A stretch of DNA of 64,000 nucleotides, taken from positions 946,401 through 1,010,400 of the forward strand of contig NC_088654.1 of the NCBI RefSeq assembly GCF_964019385.1. Reading direction: 5' to 3'. A model generated the notes under the pieces. The model saw nothing but the letters and a program-made list of their open reading frames with translations, searched no databases and was not told the DNA's origin. Below, piece by piece: positions 4,982 to 64,000 of this stretch. The stretch is from Sycon ciliatum. Its lineage: Eukaryota; Porifera; Calcarea; Leucosolenida; Sycettidae. Position numbers and translations under genes: made by a program. How positions within the stretch are numbered: position 1 is the stretch's first letter; each line of letters opens with the position of its first letter.

Positions 4982-6272
<1,291 letters not shown>

Positions 6273-15030: not shown

Positions 15031-15520
15031 TAGGCCTTGACAGATTATGCTAGCATAAATTTTCGCATAATTCCTACCAAAATCGAATAATCGCATTATT
15101 CGAGGCAAATTGCATACGAATCGCATAAAATTGGACTAATCCGCCTGTTCGCATCAAATTCCATACAGTTGTACATGTTCTACAAGTACAAGTACAAGTA
15201 GACACACCAGGAAGGCGTAGGTTTACGACTCCCTTGATAGCATGTCCAGTCCGCTACAATCAGTGACCAGGGTGACGGTCATAGCTAGGTCGGACGGTGC
15301 GTTGACCCCGTTGAACTTTTGCTACTACAGTATAACGCCCTCTACAAAAAAATTCACCTGTTATTTTGCACAGAACCATCATATACATTAGCAGCATATG
15401 TGAGCATAATACCGCATAATATGATAACTTTTCGCATAATAATAGCATAATTCTGCAATTTTTTCAGCAATGCGAAAAGCATAATTTCACGAAAATATTA
15501 GCATAATCTGTCAAGGCCTA
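15031..15520. mobile_element. hAT-type MITE inserted in the satellite
   Basis: A 490-bp element with perfect terminal inverted repeats (TAGGCCTTGACAGATTATGC at the left, its complement at the right), flanked by an exact 8-bp duplication GACCATGG (15023-15030 and 15521-15528) of satellite sequence. Removing the element and one duplication restores exactly five 63-bp units in the block. The 8-bp duplication and terminal TAGG point to hAT. The interior is rich in GCATAAT/TTATGC motifs and has no transposase ORF. Confidence 0.93.
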
Positions 15521-16325
15521 GACCATGGAGATCAATACCACAACTATCGCAATTGTTCAGTGGGTATCATCCATGTATTCGGTGACCATGTAGATCAATA
15601 CCACAACTATCGCAATTAGTTGTAGACGAACATTTTCTTGTCGGGTCTCATACTTCAGTGGGTATCATCCATGTATTCGGTGACCATGGAGATCAATACC
15701 ACAACTATCGCAATTGTTCAGTGGGTATCATCCATGTATTCGGTGACCATGTAGATCAATACCACAACTATCGCAATTAGTTGTAGACGAACATTTTCTT
15801 GTCGGGTCTCATACTTCAGTGGGTATCATCCATGTATTCGGTGACCATGGAGATCAATACCACAACTATCGCAATTGTTCAGTGGGTATCATCCATGTAT
15901 TCGGTGACCATGGAGATCAATACCACAACTATCGCAATTGTTCAGTGGGTATCATCCATGTATTAGGTGACCATGGAGATCAATACCACAACTATCGCAA
16001 TTGTTCAGTGGGTATCATCCATGTATTCGGTGACCATGGAGATCAATACCACAACTATCGCAATTGTTCAGTGGGTATCATCCATGTATTCGGTGACCAT
16101 GTAGATCAATACCACAACTATCGCAATTAGTTGTAGACGAACATTTTCTTGTCGGGTCTCATACTTCAGTGGGTATCATCCATGTATTCGGTGACCATGG
16201 AGATCAATACCACAACTATCGCAATTGTTCAGTGGGTATCATCCATGTATTCGGTGACCATGTAGATCAATACCACAACTATCGCAATTTGTTGTAGACG
16301 AACATTTTCTTGTCGGGTCTCATAC

Positions 16326-21600: not shown

Positions 21601-23890
21601 AATACCACAACTATCGCAATTGTTCAGTGGGTATCATCCATGTATTCGGTGACCATGTAGATCAATACCACAACTATCGCAATTGTTCAGTGGGTATCAT
21701 CCATGTATTCGGTGACCATGGAGATCAATACCACAACTATCGCAATTGTTCAGTGGGTATCATCCATGTATTCGGTGACCATGTAGATCAATACCACAAC
21801 TATCGCAATTGTTCAGTGGGTATCATCCATGTATTCGGTGACCATGGAGATCAATACCACAACTATCGCAATTGTTCAGTGGGTATCATCCATGTATTCG
21901 GTGACCATGGAGATCAATACCACAACTATCGCAATTGTTCAGTGGGTATCATCCATGTATTCGGTGACCATGTAGATCAATACCACAACTATCGCAATTG
22001 TTCAGTGGGTATCATCCATGTATTCCGTGACCATGGAGATCAATACCACAACTATCGCAATTGTTCAGTGGGTATCATCCATGTATTCGGTGACCATGGA
22101 GATCAATACCACAACTATCGCAATTGTTCAGTGGGTATCATCCATGTATTCGGTGACCATGGAGATCAATACCACAACTATCGCAATTGTTCAGTGGGTA
22201 TCATCCATGTATTCGGTGACCATGGAGATCAATACCACAACTATCGCAATTGTTCAGTGGGTATCATCCATGTATTCGGTGACCATGGAGATCAATACCA
22301 CAACTATCGCAATTGTTCAGTGGGTATCATCCATGTATTCGGTGACCATGGAGATCAATACCACAACTATCGCAATTGTTCAGTGGGTATCATCCATGTA
22401 TTCGGTGACCATGTAGATCAATACCACAACTATCGCAATTGTTCAGTGGGTATCATCCATGTATTCGGTGACCATGGAGATCAATACCACAACTATCGCA
22501 ATTGTTCAGTGGGTATCATCCATGTATTCGGTGACCATGGAGATCAATACCACAACTATCGCAATTGTTCAGTGGGTATCATCCATGTATTCGGTGACCA
22601 TGTAGATCAATACCACAACTATCGCAATTGTTCAGTGGGTATCATCCATGTATTCGGTGACCATGGAGATCAATACCACAACTATCGCAATTGTTCAGTG
22701 GGTATCATCCATGTATTCGGTGACCATGTAGATCAATACCACAACTATCGCAATTGTTCAGTGGGTATCATCCATGTATTCGGTGACCATGGAGATCAAT
22801 ACCACAACTATCGCAATTGTTCAGTGGGTATCATCCATGTATTCGGTGACCATGGAGATCAATACCACAACTATCGCAATTGTTCAGTGGGTATCATCCA
22901 TGTATTCGGTGACCATGTAGATCAATACCACAACTATCGCAATTGTTCAGTGGGTATCATCCATGTATTCGGTGACCATGGAGATCAATACCACAACTAT
23001 CGCAATTGTTCAGTGGGTATCATCCATGTATTCGGTGACCATGTAGATCAATACCACAACTATCGCAATTGTTCAGTGGGTATCATCCATGTATTCGGTG
23101 ACCATGGAGATCAATACCACAACTATCGCAATTGTTCAGTGGGTATCATCCATGTATTCGGTGACCATGGAGATCAATACCACAACTATCGCAATTGTTC
23201 AGTGGGTATCATCCATGTATTCGGTGACCATGTAGATCAATACCACAACTATCGCAATTGTTCAGTGGGTATCATCCATGTATTCGGTGACCATGGAGAT
23301 CAATACCACAACTATCGCAATTGTTCAGTGGGTATCATCCATGTATTCGGTGACCATGGAGATCAATACCACAACTATCGCAATTGTTCAGTGGGTATCA
23401 TCCATGTATTCGGTGACCATGGAGATCAATACCACAACTATCGCAATTGTTCAGTGGGTATCATCCATGTATTCGGTGACCATGGAGATCAATACCACAA
23501 CTATCGCAATTGTTCAGTGGGTATCATCCATGTATTCGGTGACCATGGAGATCAATACCACAACTATCGCAATTGTTCAGTGGGTATCATCCATGTATTC
23601 GGTGACCATGTAGATCAATACCACAACTATCGCAATTGTTCAGTGGGTATCATCCATGTATTCGGTGACCATGGAGATCAATACCACAACTATCGCAATT
23701 GTTCAGTGGGTATCATCCATGTATTCCGTGACCATGGAGATCAATACCACAACTATCGCAATTGTTCAGTGGGTATCATCCATGTATTCGGTGACCATGG
23801 AGATCAATACCACAACTATCGCAATTGTTCAGTGGGTATCATCCATGTATTCCGTGACCATGGAGATCAATACCACAACTATCGCAATTG

Positions 23891-24080
23891 TTGCACTTCC
23901 CTATGGTCCATATTACAGTACTGTGGTAGCATTTTCCGGAATAAAAGTGAAATCCATCATGAGCCTCTAACCCAGGTTATTTATTTATCCCGATGATTGT
24001 GTTGTTGAGGAATACATGATGTTTCAGGGAGATGTGATGCAGCAAAGTAAAAATATTTCAAAAATCATAACCCGGGGTCC
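23891..24080. other. Satellite flank, no feature recognised
   Basis: Unique-looking AT-rich DNA between the last satellite unit and the next MITE; no coding or structural signal seen. Confidence 0.5.
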
Positions 24081-36969: not shown

Positions 36970-37400
36970 GATCAAAGTTTAGCTGCTTGCTGAGGCAGTA
37001 GCGATGGCAATACTAATTGGGAGTTTATCTGGTAGGCTGGGCGCAATGGAGCTATAGATGTGCTGAGCAATGTGAGCAAGTACATACGGAAGAGATGCCA
37101 AGTGGTAGGATGTTTGCTTTGAAATCTCGTCTGGGGTTGATTTGCCGGAGGCTGAGTGGGATGCTATTAAAGAGATCAAGAGAAGCATAGATGGGGGAGT
37201 CTCTTAGCCGGTTTGTACGTGTTGTGGGTAGCTCAAAGATTCGGGGGAAGCTGAGCGTGCGAAATGGGTTGTATTCGGGGTAGGTGAATTGCAAGAAGGT
37301 GTGGTGGTGCATATCTATGATGCAGGCTATGTGCAAGAAGGATATGGGAGAGGGTACGGCGGCTACTGAGTGATGGCCATTTGAGTCGCCTTGTAGTCTT
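36970..37400 (-). pseudogene. LINE ORF2 C-terminal fragment
   Basis: On the minus strand, LKWPSLSSRRTLSHILLAH, HHRYAPPHL, ELPTTRTNRLRDSPIYASL and LFNSIPLSLRQI match the extreme C-terminus of LINE ORF2 proteins such as the one at 11.8-12.1 kb (LKWPTMFSRRKVKLTLLAH). Truncated by the foldback element that starts at about 37400. Confidence 0.7.
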
Positions 37401-37935
37401 TGTTGTGCTGAGTCGAATGGTCTTGGTCCAAGGAAGCTGAGACGCTCCCCTTCTCCTTGATTTCCAATCTAATTCGCTCACTTCCACCGAAACTGGATGA
37501 CTGCGCCCTACTAGATGGGGATTTGTATGCAAAAGTCACTAAAAGCGGCGTTGAAGCCTTGAACCTTTGAGTTGAACCTTGGTGTGCACGTTGTAGCCTG
37601 TATGCATGTTGACCAGGTGAGTGGTATACGCATGAGCACTTGACCGCTTACTCACCTGTGTTCGATTGGGAATAAGGGTGGAAAGCTGCATCGCGTTCGG
37701 ACCAAACCCAGTCGACTCAGCGTCCACAAGACTATAGGATATCGACCAATCCCGGTCATGCGTGCTTTTATAAGAATGAAGCGGTGCTTTTAGTGACATT
37801 TTCCATACATACATCACCATCTAGTAGGGCACAGTCACCCAGTTTCGGTGAAAGTGCGCGAGTTCGATTGGAAATACAGGAGGAAGGGAGCGTCTCAGCT
37901 TACTCGGACCAAGACCATTCTCTGAGAATACCAAA
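37400..37935. mobile_element. Degenerate relative of the TTAA foldback element
   Basis: Inverted segments containing GTGCTGAGTCGAATGGTCTT (37406) and the opposite GGGCGCAGTCACCC/CCGAAACTGG motifs match the arms of the foldback at 41512-42372. It lacks the terminal AGGGGAAGTTAAGG and is more diverged. Like the intact copies it abuts LINE ORF2 C-terminal sequence. Confidence 0.75.
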
Positions 37936-39596: not shown

Positions 39597-39637
39597 GTAG
39601 GGAGTAGTAGGTATTTCCTACTCCTTTGTTTTAGCTA

Positions 39638-40507
39638 AGGCCGCGGTCACACCGAGCTCGATTCAGCCGTTCAGCCGAAACAAGCGCTTGTTTACGTCAC
39701 TATTACCATGGAAATGGCTGAAAAATGTCCTACAAGCGACTTTTAGCTGTGGCTGACTCTCAGCCGTTTTTTTCGGCTTGTTTCAGCCACAGCTTGTACA
39801 AGCGGCTGAAAGCCGAAATTCAAAAAAATTGAGTGCGCTTGGAGCTCCGGAGCACACCATGTAGCTAGTTGACATGATGAACTGATATTGATGTTCTTTC
39901 TTGTGTCCGTGGAACCTATCCCTGTGCCTTTGGTTTTGACCGTGAGTCTGTCTACCCCAACTACACTGTATTCAGTTTGATTTGGATTTTGTCCGACGAC
40001 CATGGATTTCTGCCGCTGTGCCTCTAGACTGCTGCGTAGATTGTTGGAGCTGTGGTTTGAGGCCAAGACAAGGCACCACACTCACGACCGAATTCATGAA
40101 GAAAGCGGGGTACGAAGAAGAGAGTGGATTGCAACTGAGTTCAATAAAGGCAACCGGCGGGGCAGAAAGCTCGACATCAGGAAACACCACCCGAGCCATC
40201 GCGTCCATGCACACCGAACAAATAAAAGGAGCACGACTTCGCAATTCAGAATCCGGGTTTCCTTTGCTTCTTCATCAAAACTGAACACTAGAACAAGTAC
40301 AGTTTTAGATCGCGAACGTTCTGCTCTCCAGTTTCTTGCAAACATTGGTGTGTTTCGAGATATTCAAAATTTGGCGGGTAAGAAAAACAAGCCATTCAAG
40401 CTTTGCACTCAAAGTCTGGTGTGACCGCGTCACAGGGATCACGCAAGCCAGCTGAGAGCCAGCGATAACAAGCCCAAAGTGGCTTGTTTCGGTGTGACCG
40501 GGGCCTA
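39638..40507. mobile_element. Terminal foldback/MITE, arm 1 copy
   Basis: Ends AGGCCGCGGTCACACC and GGTGTGACCGGGGCCT are inverted repeats; the interior also has CAGCCG/CGGCTG-rich inverted segments. On its right is BEL integrase sequence, on its left unrelated DNA. The interior open frames (up to 140 codons) match nothing I know. Confidence 0.8.
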
Positions 40508-40689
40508 AGCCTTGTAGCGGCGGCATGTAACACATCGCTGAGTAATGTTGCGTAGCGCTCGTCGACCACCGATAATCCAGAATTTCTGACGGATGAAGGA
40601 CAAGACTCCTTCTACACCTTGGTGCATCCTTTCAACATGCTTTTTCTCCAACAGCAACTCGGTCAGATGATGTTTGCCTAACAGGACTG
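40508..40689 (-). pseudogene. BEL/Pao integrase zinc-finger fragment, arm 1
   Basis: Complement of 62628-62809: HHLTELLLEKKHVERMHQG ... CVTC is the H2C2 finger. It ends at the foldback, and no integrase catalytic core follows in this arm. Confidence 0.88.
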
Positions 40690-40700
40690 GGTGCTTGGCT

Positions 40701-40750
40701 CCTGACTGCGAATCAGGAGATTCCAGGTTCGTATCCTGGCGTGGTCGCCA
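40701..40750 (+). other. tRNA-Arg 3' fragment (nt 27-76) as primer-binding-site extension, arm 1
   Basis: Sense-oriented copy of the anticodon arm, variable loop, T arm, 3' acceptor strand and CCA of a tRNA-Arg. The 5' acceptor and D arm are absent, so it cannot be a tRNA gene. It is the complement of the PBS region at 62567-62616. Confidence 0.88.
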
Positions 40751-40752
40751 AA

Positions 40753-41091
40753 TGTTGTGAACCCTCTAAGATTCTCTAAATTGTCAGGATCGTACGACCA
40801 CACGGCACGAGGACAACACTTTTCCTTTAGACAGTATATTTCACTTCATCGAATAATTAACAATGAACACTAATAACATCAGCTATTTATAGCATGCAAA
40901 ACAGCGTACATGCAAAACATACGCATATAAAACTGGACATAACAGCGTATACAGCAAAACGCACACAACGCATATAGCGTATGCCATGCAGCAACATCAG
41001 CGGTACGGCGGAGTCGAAATACAACATTTCACCGAATACCATGCCATAAGCGCGAAGGCCTTTCCCAATTGAGAACTGGTGGTTTACAACA
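40753..41091 (-). mobile_element. BEL/Pao LTR, arm 1 copy
   Basis: 339 bp, complement of 62226-62564. It reads TGTTGTGAACCC...TTTACAACA on the plus strand. Confidence 0.92.
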
Positions 41092-41205
41092 CCAGCCATG
41101 GCAAAAAAGAAGAAGAAGAAAAAAGAAGAAAGAAAAACAAGTGCAAATCAGAACAACAACAATAAAAGAAGAGATTGGGCTGCAAGTCAAGTTGTATTAT
41201 TAGGT

Positions 41206-44200
41206 TTACGGGAAATGGTCCGAGAGATCACGAACAAAGGCAGAAATGTTTTCACATGATTGCATTTTTTGGGGAAGCGAGTCCCAGAGACAATAGCTAA
41301 TGAAAACAGGCGAGCGACTCATTGAGTTATTTCTTGAAATAGGGAATCTAAATTTATTACGACTTGACGAAGAGGAGTTAAACCAGTTAACTGCATTTTG
41401 AATATGCATTGGGGCCTTCAGCAGTTTGATCTGATGGATAAATCTACAGCAGAGTCTGTTAATTATGGTTTGTAAAGGACAGGTTTTGCAATGAGAATAC
41501 AGAATTGTTAAAGGGGAAGTTAAGGCAAAAATTAAAATTTCACCAGTTGTAGTCATCGGGGTGCTGAGTCGAATGGTCTTGGTCCGAGAAAGCTGAGACG
41601 CTCCCTTCCTACTTGAATCCCAATCGAACTCGCGCACTCCCACCGAAACTGGGTGACTGCGCCCTACTAGATGGGGATTTGTATGCAAAATGTCACTAAA
41701 AGCGCCATTTCGTTCTTATAAAAGCACGGATGACCGCGATTGGCCCATATGTTGTAGTCTTTTGGACGCTGAGTCGACTGGTTTTGGTCCGAAAAGGCTG
41801 CGATGCAGCGTTCCTCCTTTATTCCCAATCGAACATGGTTGAACAAGCGGTCACGTGCTCCTGCGTACACCAGTCAGCGGGTCACCGTGCCTGCAGGGTA
41901 CAACTTACTAGCCTGTTTGACCTTTTTTGGGTGCAGTCCTGTCACTCGAGTTGAACTCGAGTTGAACCTTGGTGTGAAAGTTGTCGCCTGCTGGCGGTGT
42001 GACCGGGTGATTTGGGCACCCAGGAGCACGTGACCACTTGTTCAACCATGTTTGATTGGGAATAAAGGAGGAACGCTGCATCGCAGCCTTTTCGAACCAA
42101 AACCAGTCGATTCAGCGTCCAAAAGACTACAATATATGGGCCAATCGCGGTCATCCGTGCTTTTATAAGAACGAAACGGTGCTTTTAGTGACATTTTGCA
42201 TACAATTCCCCATCTAGTAGGGCGCAGTCACCCAGTTTCGGTGGAAGTGCGCGAGTTCGTTTGGGATTCAAGCAGGAAGGAAGCGTCTCAGCTTTCTCGG
42301 ACCAAGACCATTCGACTCAGCACCCCGAAAACTACAACTGGTGAAATTTTAATTTTTGCCTTAACTTCCCCTTTAATGGGGTGTCAAGTGGTAAGCGAAA
42401 TATCGCTCTCAAAATCCTGCGATGCATTAGTTCAAGCCGCGGAAGCATTCCTGCTCCAACACTGCACCACACAATGCTACAGTATAAAATGATGGGTAAG
42501 ATATAGGAGGCGTAGAAAGCCCGACGACATACTAGTGGTAAATGGCTCATGTGACTGTATAGAAGACCAACAGTGGAACTTGTTCGGTGCTCGAGATACT
42601 CCAGATGGTGGGCCTGAGCCAAAGATGACTCCAAGGTGTTTGTGGTGGCTAACAGTTGGGATGGGCGTCCGGTCGTCAGGGAAGTGGAATAGGTACTGGT
42701 CGATGTAGGAAAGATCGGAACGCGGTTGAGGTGGAATGCACAATATGACAGTCTATCCAGCATTCGGTCGAAGTTTCCAGAGATGCATCCATTCAACCAC
42801 TGAGCAAATTTCCGACTGCAAAGAATTACACGCCATGGGCAGGGCAAGTTTAGATGCCACAAGGGTAGTATCATCGGCGTACAGGGAGGTATTTGGAACA
42901 CGAGTTTTAAAAGTCATTTACATAGAGCAAGAAGAGAAGAGGCCCGAGTATTGAGCCCTGTGGCACACCGGAACATACTTCGAGCGGTTGGGACAGCGAG
43001 CCTGACACCCTGACCTGTTGGATCCGGAAGGATAGGTAGCTTTCGAGCCACCGCAGAACATTGCCACCGATGTTAAAGGAGGCGACTTTGGCCAACAAAC
43101 CACGGTGCCACACTGTATTAAAGGCCTTTGATAGGTCGAAGAAACAAACTAGGCTAAAGTTGTGCTGATGTCTGCGTTTCAACAGGTTCTGAGTAAAGCG
43201 TGCAAGTTGCCACGCGGTAGAATCTCCTTTGCGGAATCCAGACTGGGCTGGAGATAGTAGAGGATTTACATGGGCATACAATTGGTCGTACATGACGCGC
43301 TCACACAGTTTAGATATTGCAGAAAGGAGGGATATAGGACGGTAATTTGTTGGATCGGATTTGCTGCCCTTATTTTTGTAAATGGGGACAACAACGGAGC
43401 GTTTCCAGACAGATGGAAAAACACGAGATGAGAAGGACAGATTAAAAATTAAACTCAGTGGATCGCAGATTGACGGACCAAGGATCTTTAGTAGTTCGTT
43501 TGTGATACCATCCAGGCCAGCTGCCTTGCGCAGCTTGAGGCGTTTGATGTACTTGGCAACGCTGGTAGGAGTTGTTCTAATGTCTGTGAAGAAGGAGGTG
43601 CTATCAGCATCAGCAATGGGCGGGATAGTCCACTCTGGATTGTTGGAGGTGCCAAATGCTACGAACTGCTTGTTGAAAACATTTGCAATGTCAGAAGGTG
43701 ACGTAAACGTTTCATCCTGAACAGTTAGTTGCTTAGTGGGCTGTCGCTGGCTGGGTGGTGAACGTAATGATCGGATAACAGTATGTAGCGTTGGCCGTGA
43801 TGTTGGCGTTGTGGCATGTGAGTGCAGTGTAAGGGAGTTAGCGTAAGCACGGTGCTCTGAGCGGGGGAGAAGGCGGGTGGTGTTCCGTTCTGTCTTGTAT
43901 CTGGCCTGATTTGCGGGTGTTGGGAATTTTTTGTACGGACTGAATGCATCACGCTTGCGTTTGATCTGAGCTCGCAGGGCTGGTGTCAGCCAGGGAGGTT
44001 GGGAAAATTGTGGGCGATTGGATGGCTGTCGGATGCAGCGCATAGGAACGTTCGACGATATTATGTTCATCAGTATATGGTTAAGTAAGTCCACTGAATG
44101 GGATGGGTTACCAAGAGGAATTTGGAGCTCGCTGAACCAATCGATAGTCGATAAGCACTGGCCAACGAGGGACCACTCTTCGTAGGCTCTGAGGGATGTA

Positions 44201-45273
44201 TCGAATGAAGAAAAGTTGAACTGACTTGGTTTGTCTGGGATGGCAACACTTCGTGTGTCTCGCTGACCTTGTAATTGGAGTCTGGCGGGGACAATGTCGT
44301 GGTCGGAGGTACCCAGCGGTGCGGCAGTTGAGAGGTTAGAAAGAAGTAGTGGGTGGTTGGTTATAACCAGGTCTAACGCACTGGCATGACCACTGTGTTG
44401 GGAGTAATGCGTGGGAAAGGTAACGAGCTGTGATAGGGAGAGCATTTGAAGCAGACAAAGCAGTTGATGACCAACCGCATCTGTGGTCGATCCATACCAT
44501 TCCGAGCAACGAGCGTTGAAGTCCCCAGAGACGAGAAGCATGGAATCGGGCATAGATAAGCGTTGCAAGATGGATTGAAATTGAGTAAGGAAATTATCGG
44601 TTTGGCGGTGTGTCAATGATGGCAGCCTATACACCGGTCCTAAATAGAGTTTGGTGAGCTGAGAGTTGGAAGATAGGGTAAATTCAACCCACGCTGCCTC
44701 CAGATCGGGAAGGTGCAGGTCAGTCCGGTGACGGACTTTAATAAATATTCCAGTGCGGACTAAAATAGCCACCCCACCGTAGCCCCGGAAATCATTCCTG
44801 TTGTGCCGGTTTTCCTGTGTTGGCCGGTCCCTGCGGTAACAGTCATAGCCAGGAACTGTGAGAGGCTGGCTTGCGGATAGCCATGTTTCTGTGAGACAGA
44901 CAACTAGGGGGTTGTATGTCATAAGAAAATCCGCGAGATCGGCCAGTTTGTTATTTATGGAGCGAGCATTTATTGTGGCTACAGTATAGTCGAATAGATC
45001 AGCATTTGCGTGTGAAGTTGTGTGCGTGGTTGTGGGTGCAAGACGGAAAGGTGGAGCCAATGGGTTGAGTGTTAAACTCATTGTTTCTCGTCTGTTGAGT
45101 AGCGACGCTGGTCTACACTGCCTAAAGTGCGATCATCATCGGATTTAAATTTCCAGGGTCGGGCAGAGACGTTTGACGGCCAGAAGTCGGGTTTGCTGAC
45201 TGTATCCATGTCCTTTGCGTCTATCAGCACATGTGCAAAAGCGGCAATGCGTGCACATGCTACGAGATTGAGT
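41206..45273 (-). pseudogene. LINE, arm 1 copy (5'-truncated, foldback-interrupted)
   Basis: Complement of the arm 2 LINE (58044-62111). EN-RT frame 45081-42907, frameshifted YADDTT region to about 42373, foldback insertion 41512-42372, C-terminus 41507-41206. It differs from arm 2 at only a few residues (for example RNTTRLLPRS versus RNNTRLLSRS, LSQPLEV versus LSQTLEV). The (AAT)n at 45275-45296 marks its 5' junction. Shared lesions show it was dead before the duplication. Confidence 0.9.
41512..42372. mobile_element. TTAA-flanked foldback element, arm 1 copy
   Basis: 861 bp, ends AGGGGAAGTTAAGGC and its complement, TTAA duplicated on both sides (41508-41511 and 42373-42376). Arms of over 400 bp and a short centre; no transposase. 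Inserted in the LINE ORF2 C-terminus. Confidence 0.9.
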
Positions 45274-45708
45274 TTAATAATAATAATAATAAAAAACAAT
45301 GACCTTGATCCTGCAATGCAGTACAATGCGGTATAGGCTAAAGCATAATACTAGAATTACAAGGATATGTCGTACATGAAGAGAAACTATTGCGTGGAGA
45401 ACACGATCAATAGATTGTAGACCTCCTAACCGGTCTATGATCTACACATATACACGAGGTCCCTTGTTGTAATATATTTATACCTCTCCATGCGCAAGCT
45501 CAAGGGCAAAAAGGAGTGAATATAGCTTTAGGGAAAGAAAGCTATAATTATTCACTCCTTTTTAGAGAAAGAAGGCTATATTCACTCCTTTTTAGAGAAC
45601 GAAAGCACCTTAGTGGTGTATACACCTCCTTAGTGGTGTATATTGAACAGTTTATATGGTAATTTATAAACTTCATGGGAGATCTGGTATATGAGTGTGG
45701 GTTTATAT

Positions 45709-46117
45709 TAGGGCTCAAACGGTCACGGTTTTACCCCTGACGGTTAACTGCTAAGCTAACGGTCGGTTAACCGGTTATAACCTATAAGCCACGGCAATCC
45801 TGCGGACTCGTTTTTAACCGTATATTTGACTATACTCATTCAAAAAATGTAAACTATTCAGTACAACGCACACTTGTACATTCTCTTGCATGCTCATTCA
45901 TACATACTCTCACACCAAGAGACCAGATATGACCGAGTTGACAGCCCAGAAATTGCGTACGCGTGCGACAGCCCGCGAAAGTGCACACTTTGCAACGACC
46001 TGATACTTGAAAAATTGACTGAAAGGTTACTGCGTTAACCGTTATCTTTATCGGTTAACCGTTAATTCTTCGTAACCGGTCTGCAACCGGTTAATCGGAC
46101 TAATCGTTTGAGCCCTA
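45709..46117. mobile_element. hAT-type MITE, arm 1 copy
   Basis: 409 bp, TAGGGCTCAAACG ends, 8-bp duplication GTTTATAT (45701-45708 and 46118-46125). Interior rich in GGTTAACCG. Confidence 0.93.
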
Positions 46118-46766
46118 GTTTATATGGAGTGAGGTATAATTCTCGATATACACGAGGTCCCTTGTTATAATATATTTATAACTCTCCATGCGCAAGCTCA
46201 AGAGCAAAAAGGAGTGCATATGGCTTTCTTTCTCTAGAAAAGAGTGAATATAGCTTTAGAGAAAGAAAGCTTTATTCAAATAATCTACGTGGAGATAATA
46301 ATTTTAATTTAATCATAGCTATGAATAGGATGAAGGCCGCATACATCGTTACTTGTTTGACATAATTATGTCCAACAGTTGAAAGTCCTTGAGGCAGTTT
46401 GTATACGTATTCATAAGTCTGTTTTGTGCAAGCAGTGCGAGCACGTTGTTGCACTGAAGTTGACACTTCGTTCAGTGCCTTCTCACCTTTGGTAACGTAA
46501 TGTTGTTGCCTTTTTGCGTTTCCTCTAGTGGTTTTATTGCATTTGTATCTTGATGTTATTTCGAACACCTTTCTCTTTAGAAATGTAAAGGACATATGGA
46601 TACGAGTAACTCTCCATCACTGCAACTGGATACTATATACAGTCAGAAAGTGCAATAACTAGGCACAAAACTGACAGAGTACTGAGACATTCAACGTCCT
46701 GACACCAAGCTTAAACACATCTCCGTAGCGCTAACCGACATCCTTCCAACTTGGAAGGTTGAAGGT

Positions 46767-56551: not shown

Positions 56552-56722
56552 ACCTTCAACCTTCCAAGTTGGAAGGATGTCGGTTAGCGCTACGGAGATG
56601 TGTTTAAGCTTGGTGTCAGGACGTTGAATGTCTCAGTACTCTGTCAGTTTTGTGCCTAGTTATTGCACTTTCTGACTGTATATAGTATCCAGTTGCAGTG
56701 ATGGAGAGTTACTCGTATCCAT

Positions 56723-57046
56723 ATGTCCTTTACATTTCTAAAGAGAAAGGTGTTCGAAATAACATCAAGATACAAATGCAATAAAACCACTAGAGGAAAC
56801 GCAAAAAGGCAACAACATTACGTTACCAAAGGTGAGAAGGCACTGAACGAAGTGTCAACTTCAGTGCAACAACGTGCTCGTACTGCTTGCACAAAACAGA
56901 CTTATGAATACGTATACAAACTGCCTCAAGGACTTTCAACTGTTGGACATAATTATGTCAAACAAGTAACGATGTATGCGGCCTTCATCCTATTCATAGC
57001 TATGATTAAATTAAAATTATTATCTCCACGTAGATTATTTGAATAA
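56723..57046 (+). other. 107-codon open frame in the arm repeat
   Basis: ATG-initiated frame (MSFTFLKRKVFEITSRYK...) with a hydrophobic segment YAAFILFIAMIKL near the end; identical in arm 1 (46595-46272). No family recognised. A diverged copy in the spacer (about 47100) does not keep the frame, which argues against a protein. Confidence 0.25.
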
Positions 57047-57047
57047 A

Positions 57048-57870
57048 GCTTTCTTTCTCTAAAGCTATATTCACTCTTTTTTAGAGAAAGAAAGCCATAT
57101 GCACTCCTTTTTGCTCTTGAGCTTGCGCATGGAGAGTTATAAATATATTATAACAAGGGACCTCGTGTATATCGAGAATTATACCTCACTCCATATAAAC
57201 TAGGGCTCAAACGATTAGTCCGATTAACCGGTTGCAGACCGGTTACGAAGAATTAACGGTTAACCGATAAAGATAACGGTTACGCAGTAACTTTTCAGTC
57301 AATGTTTCAAGTATCAGGTCGTTGCAAAGTGTGCACTTTCGCGGGCTGTCGCACGCGTACGCAATTTCTGGGCTGTCAACTCGGTCATATCTGGTCTCTT
57401 GGTGTGAGAGTATGTATGAATGAGCATGCAAGAGAATGTACAAGTGTGCGTTGTACTGAATAGTTTACATTTTTTGAATGAGTATAGTCAAATATACGGT
57501 TAAAAACGAGTCCGCAGGATTGCCGTGGCTTATAGGTTATAACCGGTTAACCGACCGTTAGCTTAGCAGTTAACCGTCAGGGGTAAAACCGTGACCGTTT
57601 GAGCCCTAATATAAACCCACACTCATATACCAGATCTCCCATGAAGTTTATAAATTACCATATAAACTGTTCAATATACACCACTAAGGAGGTGTATACA
57701 CCACTAAGGTGCTTTCGTTCTCTAAAAAGGAGTGAATATAGCCTTCTTTCTCTAAAAAGGAGTGAATAATTATAGCTTTCTTTCCCTAAAGCTATATTCA
57801 CTCCTTTTTGCCCTTGAGCTTGCGCATGGAGAGGTATAAATATATTACAACAAGGGACCTCGTGTATATG
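57048..57870. repeat. Direct repeats flanking the hAT MITE (arm 2)
   Basis: A ~110-bp block (TTCTCTAAAGCTATATTCAC ... GGGACCTCGTGTATAT) at 57052-57172 recurs at 57780-57870 with few changes; AAAGGAGTGAATATAGC motifs lie between them in both orientations. The mirror image is in arm 1 (45450-46275). Probably the two sides of a small composite repeat later split by the MITE. Confidence 0.75.
57201..57608. mobile_element. hAT-type MITE, arm 2 copy
   Basis: 408 bp, TAGGGCTCAAACG...CGTTTGAGCCCTA, with perfect 8-bp duplication ATATAAAC (57193-57200 and 57609-57616). Confidence 0.93.
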
Positions 57871-58020
57871 TGTAGATCATAGACCGGTTAGGAGGTCTAC
57901 AATCTATTGATCGTGTTCTCCACGCAATAGTTTCTCTTCATATACGACATATCCTTGTAATTCTAGTATTATGCTTTAGCCTATACCGCATTGTACTGCA
58001 TTGCAGGATCAAGGTCATTG

Positions 58021-58043
58021 TTTTTTATTATTATTATTATTAA
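58021..58043. repeat. (TTA)n at LINE 5' junction, arm 2
   Basis: Short TTATTA run directly before the truncated LINE; mirrored at 45275-45296. Confidence 0.85.
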
Positions 58044-58239
58044 ACTCAATCTCGTAGCATGTGCACGCATTGCCGCTTTTGCACATGTGCTGATAGACGC
58101 AAAGGACATGGATACAGTCAGCAAACCCGACTTCTGGCCGTCAAACGTCTCTGCCCGACCCTGGAAATTTAAATCCGATGATGATCGCACTTTAGGCAGT
58201 GTAGACCAGCGTCGCTACTCAACAGACGAGAAACAATGA
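58044..58239 (+). pseudogene. LINE ORF1 C-terminal remnant
   Basis: The last ~60 codons of ORF1 (SKPDFWPSNVSARPWKF, typical of LINE ORF1 C-termini with F-W-P-x-x-V) end in TGA overlapping the ORF2 start as ATGA (58236-58239). The 5' part is lost at the (TTA)n junction. Confidence 0.7.
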
Positions 58240-61200
58240 GTTTAACACTCAACCCATTGGCTCCACCTTTCCGTCTTGCACCCACAACCACGCACACAAC
58301 TTCACACGCAAATGCTGATCTATTCGACTATACTGTAGCCACAATAAATGCTCGCTCCATAAATAACAAACTGGCCGATCTCGCGGATTTTCTTATGACA
58401 TACAACCCCCTAGTTGTCTGTCTCACAGAAACATGGCTATCCGCAAGCCAGCCTCTCACAGTTCCTGGCTATGACTGTTACCGCAGGGACCGGCCAACAC
58501 AGGAAAACCGGCACAACAGGAATGATTTCCGGGGCTACGGTGGGGTGGCTATTTTAGTCCGCACTGGAATATTTATTAAAGTCCGTCACCGGACTGACCT
58601 GCACCTTCCCGATCTGGAGGCAGCGTGGGTTGAATTTACCCTATCTTCCAACTCTCAGCTCACCAAACTCTATTTAGGACCGGTGTATAGGCTGCCATCA
58701 TTGACACACCGCCAAACCGATAATTTCCTTACTCAATTTCAATCCATCTTGCAACGCTTATCTATGCCCGATTCCATGCTTCTCGTCTCTGGGGACTTCA
58801 ACGCTCGTTGCTCGGAATGGTATGGATCGACCACAGATGCGGTTGGTCATCAACTGCTTTGTCTGCTTCAAATGCTCTCCCTATCACAGCTCGTTACCTT
58901 TCCCACGCATTACTCCCAACACAGTGGTCATGCCAGTGCGTTAGACCTGGTTATAACCAACCACCCACTACTTCTTTCTAACCTCTCAACTGCCGCACCG
59001 CTGGGTACCTCCGACCACGACATTGTCCCCGCCAGACTCCAATTACAAGGTCAGCGAGACACACGAAGTGTTGCCATCCCAGACAAACCAAGTCAGTTCA
59101 ACTTTTCTTCATTCGATACATCCCTCAGAGCCTACGAAGAGTGGTCCCTCGTTGGCCAGTGCTTATCGACTATCGATTGGTTCAGCGAGCTCCAAATTCC
59201 TCTTGGTAACCCATCCCATTCAGTGGACTTACTTAACCATATACTGATGAACATAATATCGTCGAACGTTCCTATGCGCTGCATCCGACAGCCATCCAAT
59301 CGCCCACAATTTTCCCAACCTCCCTGGCTGACACCAGCCCTGCGAGCTCAGATCAAACGCAAGCGTGATGCATTCAGTCCGTACAAAAAATTCCCAACAC
59401 CCGCAAATCAGGCCAGATACAAGACAGAACGGAACAACACCCGCCTTCTCTCCCGCTCAGAGCACCGTGCTTACGCTAACTCCCTTACACTGCACTCACA
59501 TGCCACAACGCCAACATCACGGCCAACGCTACATACCGTTATCCGATCATTACGTTCACCACCCAGCCAGCGACAGCCCACTAAGCAACTAACTGTTCAG
59601 GATGAAACGTTTACGTCACCTTCTGACATTGCAAATGTTTTCAACAAGCAGTTCGTAGCATTTGGCACCTCCAACAATCCAGAGTGGACTATCCCGCCCA
59701 TTGCTGATGCTGATAGCACCTCCTTCTTCACAGACATTAGAACAACTCCTACCAGCGTTGCCAAGTACATCAAACGCCTCAAGCTGCGCAAGGCAGCTGG
59801 CCTGGATGGTATCACAAACGAACTACTAAAGATCCTTGGTCCGTCAATCTGCGATCCACTGAGTTTAATTTTTAATCTGTCCTTCTCATCTCGTGTTTTT
59901 CCATCTGTCTGGAAACGCTCCGTTGTTGTCCCCATTTACAAAAATAAGGGCAGCAAATCCGATCCAACAAATTACCGTCCTATATCCCTCCTTTCTGCAA
60001 TATCTAAACTGTGTGAGCGCGTCATGTACGACCAATTGTATGCCCATGTAAATCCTCTACTATCTCCAGCCCAGTCTGGATTCCGCAAAGGAGATTCTAC
60101 CGCGTGGCAACTTGCACGCTTTACTCAGAACCTGTTGAAACGCAGACATCAGCACAACTTTAGCCTAGTTTGTTTCTTCGACCTATCAAAGGCCTTTAAT
60201 ACAGTGTGGCACCGTGGTTTGTTGGCCAAAGTCGCCTCCTTTAACATCGGTGGCAATGTTCTGCGGTGGCTCGAAAGCTACCTATCCTTCCGGATCCAAC
60301 AGGTCAGGGTGTCAGGCTCGCTGTCCCAAACGCTCGAAGTATGTTCCGGTGTGCCACAGGGCTCAATACTTGGGCCTCTTCTCTTCTTGCTCTATGTAAA
60401 TGACTTTTAAAACTCGCGTTCCAAATACCTCCCTGTACGCCGATGATACTACCCTTGTGGCATCTAAACTTGCCCTGCCCATGGCGTGTAATTCTTTGCA
60501 GTCGGAAATTTGCTCAGTGGTTGAATGGATGCATCTCTGGAAACTTCGACCGAATGCTGGATAGACTGTCATATTGTGCATTCCACCTCAACCGCGTTCC
60601 GATCTTTCCTACATGGACCAGTACCTATTCCACTTCCCTGACGACCGGACGCCCATCCCAACTGTTAGCCACCACAAACACCTTGGAGTCATCTTTGACT
60701 CAGGCCCACCATCTGGAGTATCTCGAGCACCAAACAAGTTCCACTGTTGGTCTTCTATACAGTCACATGAGCCATTTACCACTAGTATGTCGTCGGGCTT
60801 TCTACGCCTCCTATATCTTACCCATCATTTTATACTGTAGCATTGTGTGGTGCAGTGTTGGAGCAGAAATGCTTCCGCGGCTTGAAATAATGCATCGCAG
60901 GATTTTGAGAGCGATATTTCGCTTACCACTTGACACCCCATTAAAGGGGAAGTTAAGGCAAAAATTAAAATTTCACCAGTTGTAGTTTTCGGGGTGCTGA
61001 GTCGAATGGTCTTGGTCCGAGAAAGCTGAGACGCTTCCTTCCTGCTTGAATCCCAAACGAACTCGCACACTTCCACCGAAACTGGGTGACTGCGCCCTAC
61101 TAGATGGGGAATTGTATGCAAAATGTCACTAAAAGCACCGTTTCGTTCTTATAAAAGCACGGATGACCGCGATTGGCCCATATATTGTAGTCTTTTGGAC

Positions 61201-62111
61201 GCTGAATCGACTGGTTTTGGTTCGAAAAGGCTGCGATGCAGCGTTCCTCCTTTATTCCCAATCAAACATGGTTGAACAAGTGGTCACGTGCTCCTGGGTG
61301 CCGCAATCACCCGGTCACACCGCCAGCAGGCGACAACTTTCACACCAAGGTTCAACTCGAGTTCAACTCGAGTGACAGGACTGCACCCAAAAAAGGTCAA
61401 ACAGGCTAGTAAGTTGTACCCTGCAGGCACGGTGACCCGCTGACTGGTGTACGCAGGAGCACGTGACCGCTTGTTCAACCATGTTCGATTGGGAATAAAG
61501 GAGGAACGCTGCATCGCAGCCTTTTCGGACCAAAACCAGTCGACTCAGCGTCCAAAAGACTACAACATATGGGCCAATCGCGGTCATCCGTGCTTTTATA
61601 AGAACGAAATGGCGCTTTCAGTGACATTTTGCATACAAATCCCCATCTAGTAGGGCGCAGTCACCCAGTTTCGGTGGGAGTGCGCGAGTTCGATTGGGAT
61701 TCAAGTAGGAAGGGAGCGTCTCAGCTTTCTCGGACCAAGACCATTCGACTCAGCACCCCGATGACTACAACTGGTGAAATTTTAATTTTTGCCTTAACTT
61801 CCCCTTTAACAATTCTGTATTCTCATTGCAAAACCTGTCCTTTACAAACCATAATTAACAGACTCTGCTGTAGATTTATCCATCAGATCAAACTGCTGAA
61901 GGCCCCAATGCATATTCAAAATGCAGTTAACTGGTTTAACTCCTCTTCGTCAAGTCGTAATAAATTTAGATTCCCTATTTCAAGAAATAACTCAATGAGT
62001 CGCTCGCCTGTTTTCATTAGCTATTGTCTCTGGGACTCGCTTCCCCAAAAAATGCAATCATGTGAAAACATTTCTGCCTTTGTTCGTGATCTCTCGGACC
62101 ATTTCCCGTAA
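58236..62111 (+). pseudogene. LINE ORF2 (EN-RT), arm 2 copy, interrupted
   Basis: ATG at 58236 opens 724 codons. Endonuclease: TVATINARSINNK, CLTETWLS (Glu 65), GPVYRLPS, LLVSGDFNARCSEW, LGTSDHDIV. RT: KAAGLDGITNELLK, NYRPISLLSAISKL, AQSGFRKGDSTAWQLA, CFFDLSKAFNTVWHRGLL, GVPQGSILGPLLF, then a premature stop at 60408-60410 caused by a frameshift just before the catalytic motif. YADDTTLVASK resumes in another frame at about 60438. Further shifts follow; the foldback 60945-61805 splits the C-terminus, which finishes in SLPQKMQSCENIS at 62111. Broadly Jockey/CR1-like. Confidence 0.92.
60945..61805. mobile_element. TTAA-flanked foldback element, arm 2 copy
   Basis: 861 bp, inverted arms over 400 bp beginning AGGGGAAGTTAAGGC, flanked by TTAA (60941-60944 and 61806-61809). 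TTAA target with AGGG termini suggests Kolobok-type mobilisation (piggyBac being the alternative). Non-autonomous. Its insertion point lies in the conserved LINE C-terminus. Confidence 0.9.
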
Positions 62112-62225
62112 ACCTAATAATACAACTTGACTTGCAGCCCAATCTCTTCTTTTATTGTTGTTGTTCTGATTTGCACTTGTTTTTCTTTCTTCTTTTTTCT
62201 TCTTCTTCTTTTTTGCCATGGCTGG

Positions 62226-62564
62226 TGTTGTAAACCACCAGTTCTCAATTGGGAAAGGCCTTCGCGCTTATGGCATGGTATTCGGTGAAATGTTGTATTT
62301 CGACTCCGCCGTACCGCTGATGTTGCTGCATGGCATACGCTATATGCGTTGTGTGCGTTTTGCTGTATACGCTGTTATGTCCAGTTTTATATGCGTATGT
62401 TTTGCATGTACGCTGTTTTGCATGCTATAAATAGCTGATGTTATTAGTGTTCATTGTTAATTATTCGATGAAGTGAAATATACTGTCTAAAGGAAAAGTG
62501 TTGTCCTCGTGCCGTGTGGTCGTACGATCCTGACAATTTAGAGAATCTTAGAGGGTTCACAACA
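62226..62564 (+). mobile_element. BEL/Pao 5' LTR, arm 2 copy
   Basis: 339 bp, TGTTGTAAACC...GGTTCACAACA. A TATAAATA box is near 62428 and there are repeated GCATG/GTACGCTG motifs upstream. It is followed by TT and a PBS matching the 3' end of tRNA-Arg, so this is the 5' LTR of a plus-strand element. Homologous solo LTR at 31674-32010. Confidence 0.93.
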
Positions 62565-62566
62565 TT

Positions 62567-62616
62567 TGGCGACCACGCCAGGATACGAACCTGGAATCTC
62601 CTGATTCGCAGTCAGG
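62567..62616 (+). other. Primer-binding site extended over tRNA-Arg nt 76-27
   Basis: TGGCGACCACGCCAGGAT starts a 50-nt complement of a tRNA-Arg: CCA, discriminator G, 3' acceptor strand CGTGGTCG, T arm CCAGG-TTCGTAT-CCTGG, variable AGATT, anticodon arm CCTGA-CTGCGAA-TCAGG. A normal PBS covers about 12-18 nt. The tract stops at nt 27 and joins integrase sequence. Confidence 0.88.
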
Positions 62617-62620
62617 AGCC

Positions 62621-62809
62621 AAGCACCCAGTCCTGTTAGGCAAACATCATCTGACCGAGTTGCTGTTGGAGAAAAAGCATGTTGAAAGGATGCACCAAGG
62701 TGTAGAAGGAGTCTTGTCCTTCATCCGTCAGAAATTCTGGATTATCGGTGGTCGACGAGCGCTACGCAACATTACTCAGCGATGTGTTACATGCCGCCGC
62801 TACAAGGCT
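62621..62809 (+). pseudogene. BEL/Pao integrase zinc-binding domain
   Basis: KHPVLLGKHHLTELLLEKKH, VERMHQGVEGVL, FIRQKFWIIGGRRALRNI and QRCVTCRRYKA form the BEL integrase N-terminus: H-x4-H (HVERMH) and C-x2-C (CVTC). Gag, protease, RT and RNase H coding regions, normally between the PBS and this domain, are absent. It is cut by the foldback at 62810. Confidence 0.9.
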
Positions 62810-63685
62810 TAGGCCCCGGTCACACCGAAACAAGCCACTTTGGGCTTGTTATCGCTGGCTCTCAGCTGGCTTGCGTGATCCCTGTGACGCGGTCACACCA
62901 GACTTTCAGTGCAAAGCTTGAATGGCTTGTTTTTCTTACCCGACCAAATTTTGAATATCTCGAAACACACCAATGTTGGCAAGAAACTGGAGAGCAGAAC
63001 GTTCGCGATCTAAAACTGTACTTGTTCTAGTGTTCAGTTTTGATGAAGAAGCAAAGGAAACCCGGATTCTGAATTGCGAAGTCGTGCTCCTTTTATTTGT
63101 TCGGTGTGCATGGACGCGATGGCTCGGGTGGTGTTTCCTGATGTCGAGCTTTCTGCCCCGCCGGTTGCCTTTATTGAACTCAGTTGCAATCCACTCTCTT
63201 CTTCGTACCCCGCTTTCTTCATGAATTCGGTCGTGAGTGTGGTGCCTTGTCTTGGCCTCAAACCACAGCTCCAACAATCTACGCAGCAGTCTAGAGGCAC
63301 AGCGGCAGAAATCCATGGTCGTCGGACAAAATCCAAATCAAACTGAATACAGTGTAGTTGGGGTAGACAGACTCACGGTCAAAACCAAAGGCACAGGGAT
63401 AGGACGGTTCCACGGACACAAGAAAGAACATCAATATCAGTTCATCATGTCAACTAGCTACATGGTGTGCTCCGGAGCTCCAAGCGCACTCAATTTTTTT
63501 GAATTTCGGCTTTCAGCCGCTTGTACAAGCTGTGGCTGAAACAAGCCGAAAAAAAACGGCTGAGAGTCAGCCACGGCTGAAAGTCGCTTGTAGGACATTT
63601 TTCAGCCATTTCCATGGTAATAGTGACGTAAACAAGCGCTTGTTTCGGCTGAACGGCTGAATCGAGCTCGGTGTGACCGCGGCCT
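62810..63685. mobile_element. Terminal foldback/MITE inside the integrase gene, arm 2 copy
   Basis: 876 bp, inverted ends AGGCCCCGGTCACACC / GGTGTGACCGCGGCCT, flanked by AAGGCT on both sides (62804-62809 and 63686-63691). Removing the element and one flank restores an open integrase frame, so the 6-bp repeats may be the target duplication, though the superfamily is unclear. Confidence 0.8.
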
Positions 63686-63691
63686 AAGGCT

Positions 63692-64000
63692 GCCTCAGAA
63701 GTCTGCCCGCCGCTGCCAGAAGACCGAGTTGTTCACGAGAGGCCGTTCGCAACTACCGGCATCGACTATGCTGGTCCGTTGTACGTGCGCCGTGGTGAGT
63801 CATCTCCGAAGGTATGGATAGCATTGTTTGTGTGTGCCACCACCAGAGCAGTTCACTTGGAGGTGGTCGATAGTTTAAGTACCGAGTCATTCTTGATGGC
63901 ATTTCGGAAGTTTGTCGCGAGACGTAGTTTGCCGTCTCGGATCAGGTCTGACAACGCTACAACGTTCAAGGCGGCATCTGACAAACTGAGTGTGCCATGG
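63692..64000 (+). pseudogene. BEL/Pao integrase catalytic core, continues past window
   Basis: ERPFATTGIDYAGPLYVRRG, KVWIALFVCATTRAVHLEVV, SFLMAFRKFVARRSLP and RSDNATTFKAASDKL hold the first two catalytic Asp residues. No stop occurs to the window end; the Glu and the C-terminus are beyond it. Confidence 0.92.

What the first reader, a model, noticed from the sequence alone, without database searches (positions are those of the whole stretch)
62567..62616. Genomic fossil of a reverse-transcribed, modified tRNA-Arg primer
The PBS continues for 50 nt as an exact-structure antisense of tRNA-Arg nt 27-76. Against the usual eukaryotic tRNA-Arg(ACG), three changes sit at known modification sites: position 34 reads G (inosine is copied as G), position 37 reads A instead of G (m1G), and position 58 reads T instead of the near-invariant A (m1A, a classic RT misincorporation site). 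The tract ends at nt 27, next to nt 26, often m2,2G and a strong RT block. Together they look like a cDNA of a mature, modified tRNA, made when plus-strand strong-stop synthesis read past m1A58. The tRNA identity and stem pairing are visible in the sequence; the modification reading rests on general tRNA knowledge and my recollection of tRNA-Arg sequences.
Basis: partly seen in the sequence, partly recalled or inferred. Interest (0 to 1): 0.87.

Follow-up and report, generated by a model that had tools for sequence, protein, structure and literature searches.

The report
Retrotransposon fused to its tRNA primer
A deleted BEL-type retrotransposon carries, right behind its primer-binding site, a DNA copy of two thirds of the tRNA that primes it, and two of its bases are what a copying enzyme would write when it reads chemically modified tRNA bases; the host's own tRNA genes still have to be checked.

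Summary
The 50-nt tract is real and at the stated place. It is antisense to nt 76-27 of an arginine tRNA: Rfam calls it a tRNA, and nt 27-58 match the recalled fly tRNA-Arg(ACG) at 27 of 32 sites (maximum in 200,000 shuffles: 19). It lies two bases behind a 339-bp LTR. The next bases are in-frame BEL integrase. Relatives P0013 and P0203 read Y-G-A-K-H-P where the window reads S-G-A-K-H-P, so the tRNA copy is joined to mid-integrase at 62615-62616 through a shared GG, and codons before 1204 of P0013 are gone. Best reading: plus-strand strong-stop DNA overran m1A58, copied the primer to the m2,2G26 border, and made an illegitimate second strand transfer. G34 (inosine) and T58 (m1A) fit copying of a mature, modified tRNA. 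A37 is not good evidence: real tRNA-Arg(ACG) genes encode A37, and the m1G37-type signature I found is G-to-T. The decisive test, host tRNA-Arg genes and other BEL copies, could not be run: the genome service failed in 23 of 23 attempts. The window's second tract is an inverted duplication, not an independent case. Copied primer tRNAs are known from retroviruses; a germline BEL fossil recording base modifications would be a new variant.

The parts
62226..62564 (+). LTR of a BEL/Pao-type element (TGTTG...AACA, 339 bp), taken as the 5' LTR
   Evidence: Ends fixed by a related solo LTR at 32010-31674 (minus), 86.8% identical, flanked by a 5-bp direct repeat ATACC
62565..62566 (+). TT spacer between LTR and PBS
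   Evidence: read directly
62567..62584 (+). conventional PBS, antisense of tRNA-Arg nt 76-59 (includes the CCA end)
62585..62616 (+). read-through part, antisense of tRNA-Arg nt 58-27: T58 at 62585, A37 at 62606, G34 at 62609, C27 at 62616
   Evidence: RF00005 32.2 bits; 27 of 32 against recalled fly tRNA-Arg(ACG), shuffle maximum 19 of 32; positions checked
62615..62616 (+). GG shared by the tRNA copy (C27, C28) and the integrase Gly codon: junction microhomology
   Evidence: window S-G-A-K-H-P against Y-G-A-K-H-P in P0013 and P0203; a Tyr codon cannot end in the A found at 62614
62615..62811 (+). BEL integrase N-terminal zinc-binding coding sequence, joined out of place to the tRNA copy
   Evidence: Pfam Integrase_H2C2 1.7e-10; 63 of 65 residues identical to P0013 from its residue 1204 on
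62812..63684 (.). 873-bp terminal-inverted-repeat element (GGCCCCGGTCACACC...GGTGTGACCGCGGCC) inserted into the integrase, flanked by TTA and TAA; PIF/Harbinger-like MITE by recalled criteria
   Evidence: read directly; P0013 reads RRYKAKAASEV at the corresponding place
63685..64000 (+). BEL integrase core, open to the window's end
   Evidence: P0002; Pfam rve 4.9e-05, 24 bits, below its curated cut-off of 32.6; 37 of 37 residues identical to the end of P0013
40701..40750 (-). second copy of the tract in the other arm of a 7.1-kb inverted duplication (39635-46766 against 63688-56552, 99.55%); not an independent event
   Evidence: 620 nt around the tract identical in both arms

Best explanation
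This is the integrated product of one faulty round of reverse transcription by a BEL/Pao element primed with tRNA-Arg. Plus-strand strong-stop DNA, started at the polypurine tract, copied the LTR and the 18-nt PBS part of the tRNA still attached to the minus strand. It did not stop at m1A58 but went on to nt 27, next to the m2,2G26 block. Its 3' end (...CAGG) then did not land on the minus-strand PBS but on minus-strand DNA inside the integrase, through a 2-nt match (GG). Most likely the minus strand had stopped there, so that both 3' ends could prime each other and give a complete two-LTR DNA fit for integration. The result is LTR-PBS-tRNA(58-27)-integrase, with what corresponds to codons 1-1203 of P0013 deleted. 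I34 was copied as G and m1A58 was misread as T. Shown: tract, LTR, junction, microhomology with the protein-level parent, deletion. Inferred: polymerase path, modification reading, end at G26, integration with a second LTR (outside the window).
For: Tract is a tRNA and follows LTR and PBS without a break. The distal joint is the element's own integrase, in frame, with GG microhomology. The copy ends at nt 27 beside position 26, and m2,2G26 is a partial RT barrier (PMC12140624 passages). Overrun past A58 happens in HIV-1 when the m1A58 methyltransferase is mutated (PMC13191261 section 10), and copied tRNAs in retroviral DNA with deletions are known (PMC12220202). A34 and A58 in 5 of 5 bacterial tRNA-Arg genes found with a pattern that allowed G34 and T58; no tRNA-Arg(GCG) genes in human, yeasts and fly; m1A read as A-to-T; I34 consistently read as G. 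If 2 to 4 random later substitutions fell on nt 27-58, the exact pair A34G and A58T would arise with probability 0.0002 to 0.0011. The copy is little decayed: 100 of 102 integrase residues identical to P0013, though only 57 of 65 to P0203, which is itself a broken fragment.
Against: Host tRNA-Arg genes not seen. No second independent copy found: the one further protein hit (P0203, 1 of 14 candidates) lacks the tRNA part. A37 gives no support. Reading m1A58 and the anticodon-loop positions in one pass should be rare: HIV-1 RT on native tRNA stops mainly at m1A58, with minor stops at 55, 54 and 37. The probability rests on an assumed reference with A34, A37, A58. The solo LTR differs by 13%, so family age is uncertain. 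The 3' LTR and target-site duplication lie outside the window. Folded alone, the tract does not show the tRNA arms as its lowest-energy structure.
Confidence: 0.66

Rival explanations
1. The overextension happened as above, but on an unmodified or partly modified tRNA, and G34 and T58 are ordinary substitutions made later or RT errors at unmodified bases.
For: In HIV-1 overextension is best known when m1A58 is missing. The related solo LTR differs by 13%, so the family is not all young.
Against: Only 2 of 102 integrase residues differ from P0013; the exact pair has probability 0.0002-0.0011 for 2-4 random substitutions, given an assumed reference; neither change is a CpG transition (read directly).
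Confidence: 0.17
2. The host has a tRNA-Arg gene, or a tRNA from a pseudogene, that encodes G34 and/or T58; nothing records a modification.
For: Host tRNA genes were never reached. Some animals do have tRNA-Arg(GCG) genes, e.g. nine in cow (PMC5372738, passages).
Against: No tRNA-Arg(GCG) genes in human, budding and fission yeast, fly. T58 would break the near-invariant T-loop A58 and the B box (recalled). 5 of 5 bacterial relatives have A34 and A58.
Confidence: 0.09
3. An extended PBS (a primer over-extension sequence) is an old, inherited feature of this BEL family, and a later DNA deletion joined it to the integrase.
For: Primer over-extension sequences beside the PBS are known in lentiviruses and spumaviruses (PMC13191261 section 10).
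Against: As I recall, those are a few nucleotides long, not 32. A later deletion would have to end by chance exactly where the tRNA copy meets nt 26, with GG microhomology.
Confidence: 0.06
4. A tRNA-derived SINE, tRNA gene or tRNA pseudogene was inserted beside an LTR.
For: tRNA-derived sequences are common in animal repeats (recalled); Helenus TRIMs carry tRNA-like sequence in their LTRs (PMC10886601, passages).
Against: The tRNA is placed to the base as a PBS, antisense to the LTR's reading direction, with the CCA end that eukaryotic genes do not encode (recalled), without D-arm or A box, and outside the LTR.
Confidence: 0.02

Closest known systems
Moloney MLV circle with a copied tRNA-Gly between the LTRs (Colicelli and Goff, as told in PMC12220202; original not read)
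   Same: A tRNA used as a primer stayed attached, was copied during plus-strand synthesis and kept in retroviral DNA; deletions in other cloned forms
   Different: A spurious, not the usual, primer; a cloned unintegrated circle of a mutated laboratory virus; tRNA copied except four bases. Here a germline retrotransposon copy, nt 76-27, joined to integrase
HIV-1 MN provirus with retrotranscribed tRNA-Gly and large deletions (PMC12220202: abstract, passages, background and part 1 of 2 of the discussion read)
   Same: Mature tRNA copy with CCA beside deleted proviral DNA; microhomology suggested
   Different: Non-cognate tRNA beside the 3' end, self-priming proposed; here the tRNA that fits the PBS, at the 5' PBS
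HIV-1 plus-strand strong-stop overextension without m1A58 (PMC13191261, section 10 read)
   Same: Plus-strand synthesis runs past A58 into the tRNA
   Different: Biochemical and cell data, no inherited product; here an inherited product that seems to show read-through of the modified base
Helenus TRIMs (PMC10886601, passages read)
   Same: LTR elements that contain tRNA sequence
   Different: There the tRNA-like part is inside the LTR and is taken to work as a promoter; here it is antisense after the PBS
PBS mutations in mouse ERVs examined for tRNA-modification errors (PMC7472051, passages read)
   Same: Same question: do RT errors at modified primer bases become fixed in genomes
   Different: There the positions did not match known modifications; here two do, because the copy goes past the PBS

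Membership tests
BEL/Pao LTR retrotransposon | BEL/Pao polyprotein with Pao-type protease domain, RT, integrase | tested here: met
   The window's element holds only the integrase part, most similar to P0013, which has Peptidase_A17 (3.3e-39), RVT_1 and Integrase_H2C2
BEL/Pao LTR retrotransposon | LTRs beginning TG and ending CA, short target-site duplication | tested here: inconclusive
   LTR TGTTG...AACA; the related solo LTR has 5-bp repeats. For the element itself the 3' end is outside the window
BEL/Pao LTR retrotransposon | PBS complementary to a tRNA 3' end beside the 5' LTR | tested here: met
   TGGCGACCACGCC... two bases after the LTR; that BEL elements often use tRNA-Arg is recalled
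Autonomous BEL/Pao element | intact gag and pol between LTRs | tested here: not met
   What corresponds to P0013 codons 1-1203 is absent and an 873-bp element interrupts the integrase
Overextended primer-tRNA cDNA (as in MLV and HIV reports) | tRNA copy contiguous with U5/PBS and longer than 18 nt | tested here: met
   50 nt contiguous
Overextended primer-tRNA cDNA (as in MLV and HIV reports) | tRNA identity equals the family's normal primer and differs from the gene only at modified sites | not tested
   The genome search unanswered in 23 of 23 tries; no host tRNA gene or full-length PBS seen
Helenus TRIM | tRNA-like sequence inside the LTR | tested here: not met
   tract lies outside the 339-bp LTR whose end is fixed by the solo LTR
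Lentiviral-type primer over-extension sequence | short inherited complement to the tRNA after the PBS in replicating genomes | not tested
   no DNA of full-length family members could be read

The most novel reading that the evidence does not exclude
A germline DNA record of the modification state of an animal's tRNA at the time a retrotransposon copied it: inosine 34 and m1A58 are written into the genome as G and T because the element's RT read through a fully modified primer and stopped at m2,2G26. If other BEL copies show the same, extended PBS tracts would be a fossil archive of tRNA modification, and a failed second strand transfer of an overlong plus-strand DNA would be a regular source of internally deleted LTR elements.
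Probability: 0.4. Interest if true: 0.78.

Novelty: new variant of a known kind. Interest (0 to 1): 0.56.

Why it matters
In HIV-1 m1A58 of the primer tRNA is the stop signal that gives plus-strand DNA the right length. What happens when it fails is known from in vitro and cell-culture work and from single cloned or integrated DNAs. An inherited case in an animal LTR retrotransposon would show the failure in the germline, show how it can delete elements, and turn the question whether primer-tRNA modifications leave heritable base changes (looked at without a match in mouse ERV PBSs, PMC7472051) into a genome search: find PBS tracts longer than 18 nt and compare nt 58, 34 and 26 with the tRNA genes.

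Tried and rejected
Host genome: the genome search (own, window:62500-62700) was sent 23 times and never answered, so host tRNA-Arg genes, the DNA of other BEL copies, the 3' LTR and the host's name are unknown.

Other copies: viral contigs with P0013 (one pattern match, no relative), an LTR pattern (2 contigs, about what chance would give by my own estimate), the tract (0). tRNA genes with the same arm: (genome contigs) 0, (viral contigs) 0; (looser pattern, genome contigs) gave 5 loci titled Fibrobacteria, Fibrobacteres or 'bacterium', each a tRNA-Arg(ACG), 5 of 5 with A34 and A58; A37 was demanded by that pattern. Protein search for further copies of the joint: 1 hit of 14 candidates, without the tRNA part; weak evidence, because such copies need a predicted protein.

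Considered and dropped: the tract and its twin at 40701-40750 as two independent cases (one inverted duplication); the D-arm in the Rfam match (integrase coding); A37 as m1G37 trace; a prokaryotic tRNA as source (no match with G34). Host identity: the best-scoring named LINE relative is from the sponge Sycon ciliatum, 32%, too distant to name the host. Literature: in ten searches I looked at titles and starts of abstracts of the rows listed (20 of 92 papers; 28: 12 of 12; 34: 20 of 57; 35: 20 of 20; 40: 20 of 21; 58: 20 of 36; 59: 20 of 21; 75: 12 of 17; 81: 2 of 2; 82: 1 of 1). None of these rows reports such a germline fossil; the unlisted rows were not seen and most subscription journals are not held.

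Full report
What is there. At 62226-62564 lies an LTR (TGTTG...AACA). Its ends are fixed by a relative elsewhere in the window, a solo LTR at 32010-31674 on the minus strand, 86.8% identical and flanked on both sides by ATACC. After TT comes 62567-62616, the reverse complement of an arginine tRNA from its CCA end to nt 27. Rfam scores the minus strand as tRNA, 32.2 bits, gathering score 29. In the part beyond an 18-nt PBS (nt 27-58) it matches the recalled fly tRNA-Arg(ACG) at 27 of 32 sites. No other place in the window on either strand reaches 20, except the duplicate described below, and 200,000 shuffles reach at most 19. The anticodon stem and T stem are complementary over all five pairs each, with C27-G43 where fly and human (recalled) have T-A. 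Folded alone, the 50-nt strand prefers another structure (z -1.88); without its 5' third that says little.

The distal joint. From 62615 the frame reads GAKHPVLLGKHHLTELLLEKKHVERMHQGVEGVLSFIRQKFWIIGGRRALRNITQRCVTCRRYKA, an integrase zinc-binding domain (Pfam Integrase_H2C2, 1.7e-10). One search found 298 relatives (best 120 listed; 28 aligned). The most similar here is P0013, a BEL protein with Pao protease, RT and integrase domains: identical at 63 of 65 residues and at 37 of 37 further ones after the insertion. P0013 reads ...RLQHSELAY-GAKHPV, and a second, more diverged relative, P0203 (57 of 65), reads ...FRY-GAKHPV. The window reads ...SPDSQS-GAKHPV. A Tyr codon cannot end in the A at 62614, so integrase sequence starts at 62615 or later. 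The tRNA copy fits up to 62616; at 62617 it would need C, the complement of G26, but has A, which fits a Gly codon. The two sequences therefore overlap in GG, 62615-62616. What corresponds to P0013 codons 1-1203 is missing. The parental DNA was not seen, so the overlap rests on protein relatives. The Rfam match to 62632 runs over this joint; its D-arm part is integrase.

One event, seen twice. The tract at 40701-40750 belongs to a 7.1-kb inverted duplication (39635-46766 against 63688-56552, 99.55%) and is identical over 620 nt. It is not a second event. I cannot tell whether the inverted duplication is biological or an assembly effect; the tract itself does not depend on it.

How it most likely arose. 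In HIV-1 plus-strand strong-stop DNA copies 18 nt of the primer tRNA and stops before m1A58; when the methyltransferase is mutated, synthesis runs on, and of the five described strong-stop products only those ending at 58, 55 or 54 serve further (PMC13191261, section 10). A plus strand that had copied the primer to nt 27 would end exactly as found: LTR, PBS, tRNA 58-27, then a 3' end CAGG. The next template base is position 26, usually m2,2G (recalled for tRNA-Arg), a partial RT barrier in tRNA sequencing (PMC12140624, passages). The joint to the element's own minus-strand sequence inside the integrase by GG is what an illegitimate second strand transfer would give. I favour a minus strand that had stopped inside the integrase, because then both 3' ends prime each other and a normal two-LTR molecule results. 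That step is inferred.

The modification reading. G34: in human, budding and fission yeast and fly there are tRNA-Arg(ACG) but no tRNA-Arg(GCG) genes; cow has nine of the latter, so this is not a law (PMC5372738, passages). A-to-I is consistently read as G (PMC11417395, passages). T58: m1A is typically read as A-to-T or A-to-G (PMC8163159, passages). In PMC4787781 misincorporation of dATP, seen as T, depends on the 3' neighbour and is very efficient before U, while before A or G the C signal is low (passages); here the neighbour at 59 is A. The 5 prokaryotic tRNA-Arg genes found with the same arm have A34 and A58 although the pattern allowed G34 and T58. If 2 to 4 random substitutions fell on nt 27-58, the exact pair would arise with probability 0.0002 to 0.0011, given an assumed encoded state A34, A37, A58. 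A37 I do not count: it is encoded in real tRNA-Arg(ACG) genes (5 of 5, but the pattern demanded it; also recalled yeast), and the m1G37-type signature in PMC8163159 is G-to-T, not G-to-A.

What speaks against it. The host's tRNA genes and the DNA of other BEL copies were not seen; the genome search did not answer in 23 of 23 tries. Protein-level search found no second copy of the joint, which is weak either way. Reading through several modified positions in one pass should be rare. The family might have an inherited extended PBS; over-extension sequences exist in lentiviruses and spumaviruses.

Compared with what is known. A copied tRNA-Gly in an MLV circle (Colicelli and Goff, as described in PMC12220202, original not read), tRNA-Asp or tRNA-Glu stretches in two HIV variants (same source) and a retrotranscribed tRNA-Gly beside a deleted HIV provirus (PMC12220202) are the nearest cases. 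They share the copied tRNA, and some share the deletions. They differ in being laboratory infections and in involving tRNAs other than the virus's usual primer, while here the tRNA is the one that fits the PBS. A study of mouse ERV PBS mutations found that known modifications did not match the mutated positions (PMC7472051, passages). Helenus elements carry tRNA-like sequence in the LTR and are a different thing (PMC10886601, passages). Among the rows listed by my ten literature searches (titles and starts of abstracts; one search listed 20 of 92, 20 of 57, 20 of 36, 12 of 17, the rest all or all but one) I saw no report of a germline LTR retrotransposon with an overextended primer copy. Most subscription journals are not in that library, so I claim only that I did not find one.

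Verdict. Tract, tRNA identity, continuity with the PBS and the integrase joint are shown. Overextension with faulty strand transfer is the best explanation.

Noticed in passing
39635-46766 and 56552-63688: 7.1-kb inverted duplication at 99.55% identity with about 9.8 kb between the arms; the homology ends within a few bases of the right end of the inserted terminal-inverted-repeat element. Could be a young duplication or an assembly effect.
   Followed up: partly
62812-63684: 873-bp element with inverted ends GGCC(C/G)CGGTCACACC, flanked by TTA and TAA, inserted into the integrase; P0013 reads RRYKAKAASEV there. Looks like a PIF/Harbinger-type MITE (recalled criteria). A copy lies in the other duplication arm.
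   Followed up: partly
1-1399 and 4982-6272: Two nearly perfect AGT trinucleotide arrays of 1.4 and 1.3 kb (99% and 100% matches), unusually long and pure.
   Followed up: no
13567-23892: About 10 kb of a 63-bp minisatellite (about 160 copies in the larger block); one frame overlapping it stays open for 1872 codons.
   Followed up: no
58185-60985 and 42332-45132: LINE frames of 741 and 193 codons in both arms; relatives carry endonuclease and RT domains, and the best-scoring named one is from the sponge Sycon ciliatum at 32% identity.
   Followed up: partly
41508-42376 and 60941-61809: 869-bp near-palindrome (about 89% self-complementary) in each arm, with a diverged relative at 37391-37920.
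   Followed up: no
62552-62811: The integrase frame stays open through the tRNA tract and PBS back to 62552 (86 codons), so the joint makes no stop codon; probably chance over so short a stretch.
   Followed up: partly
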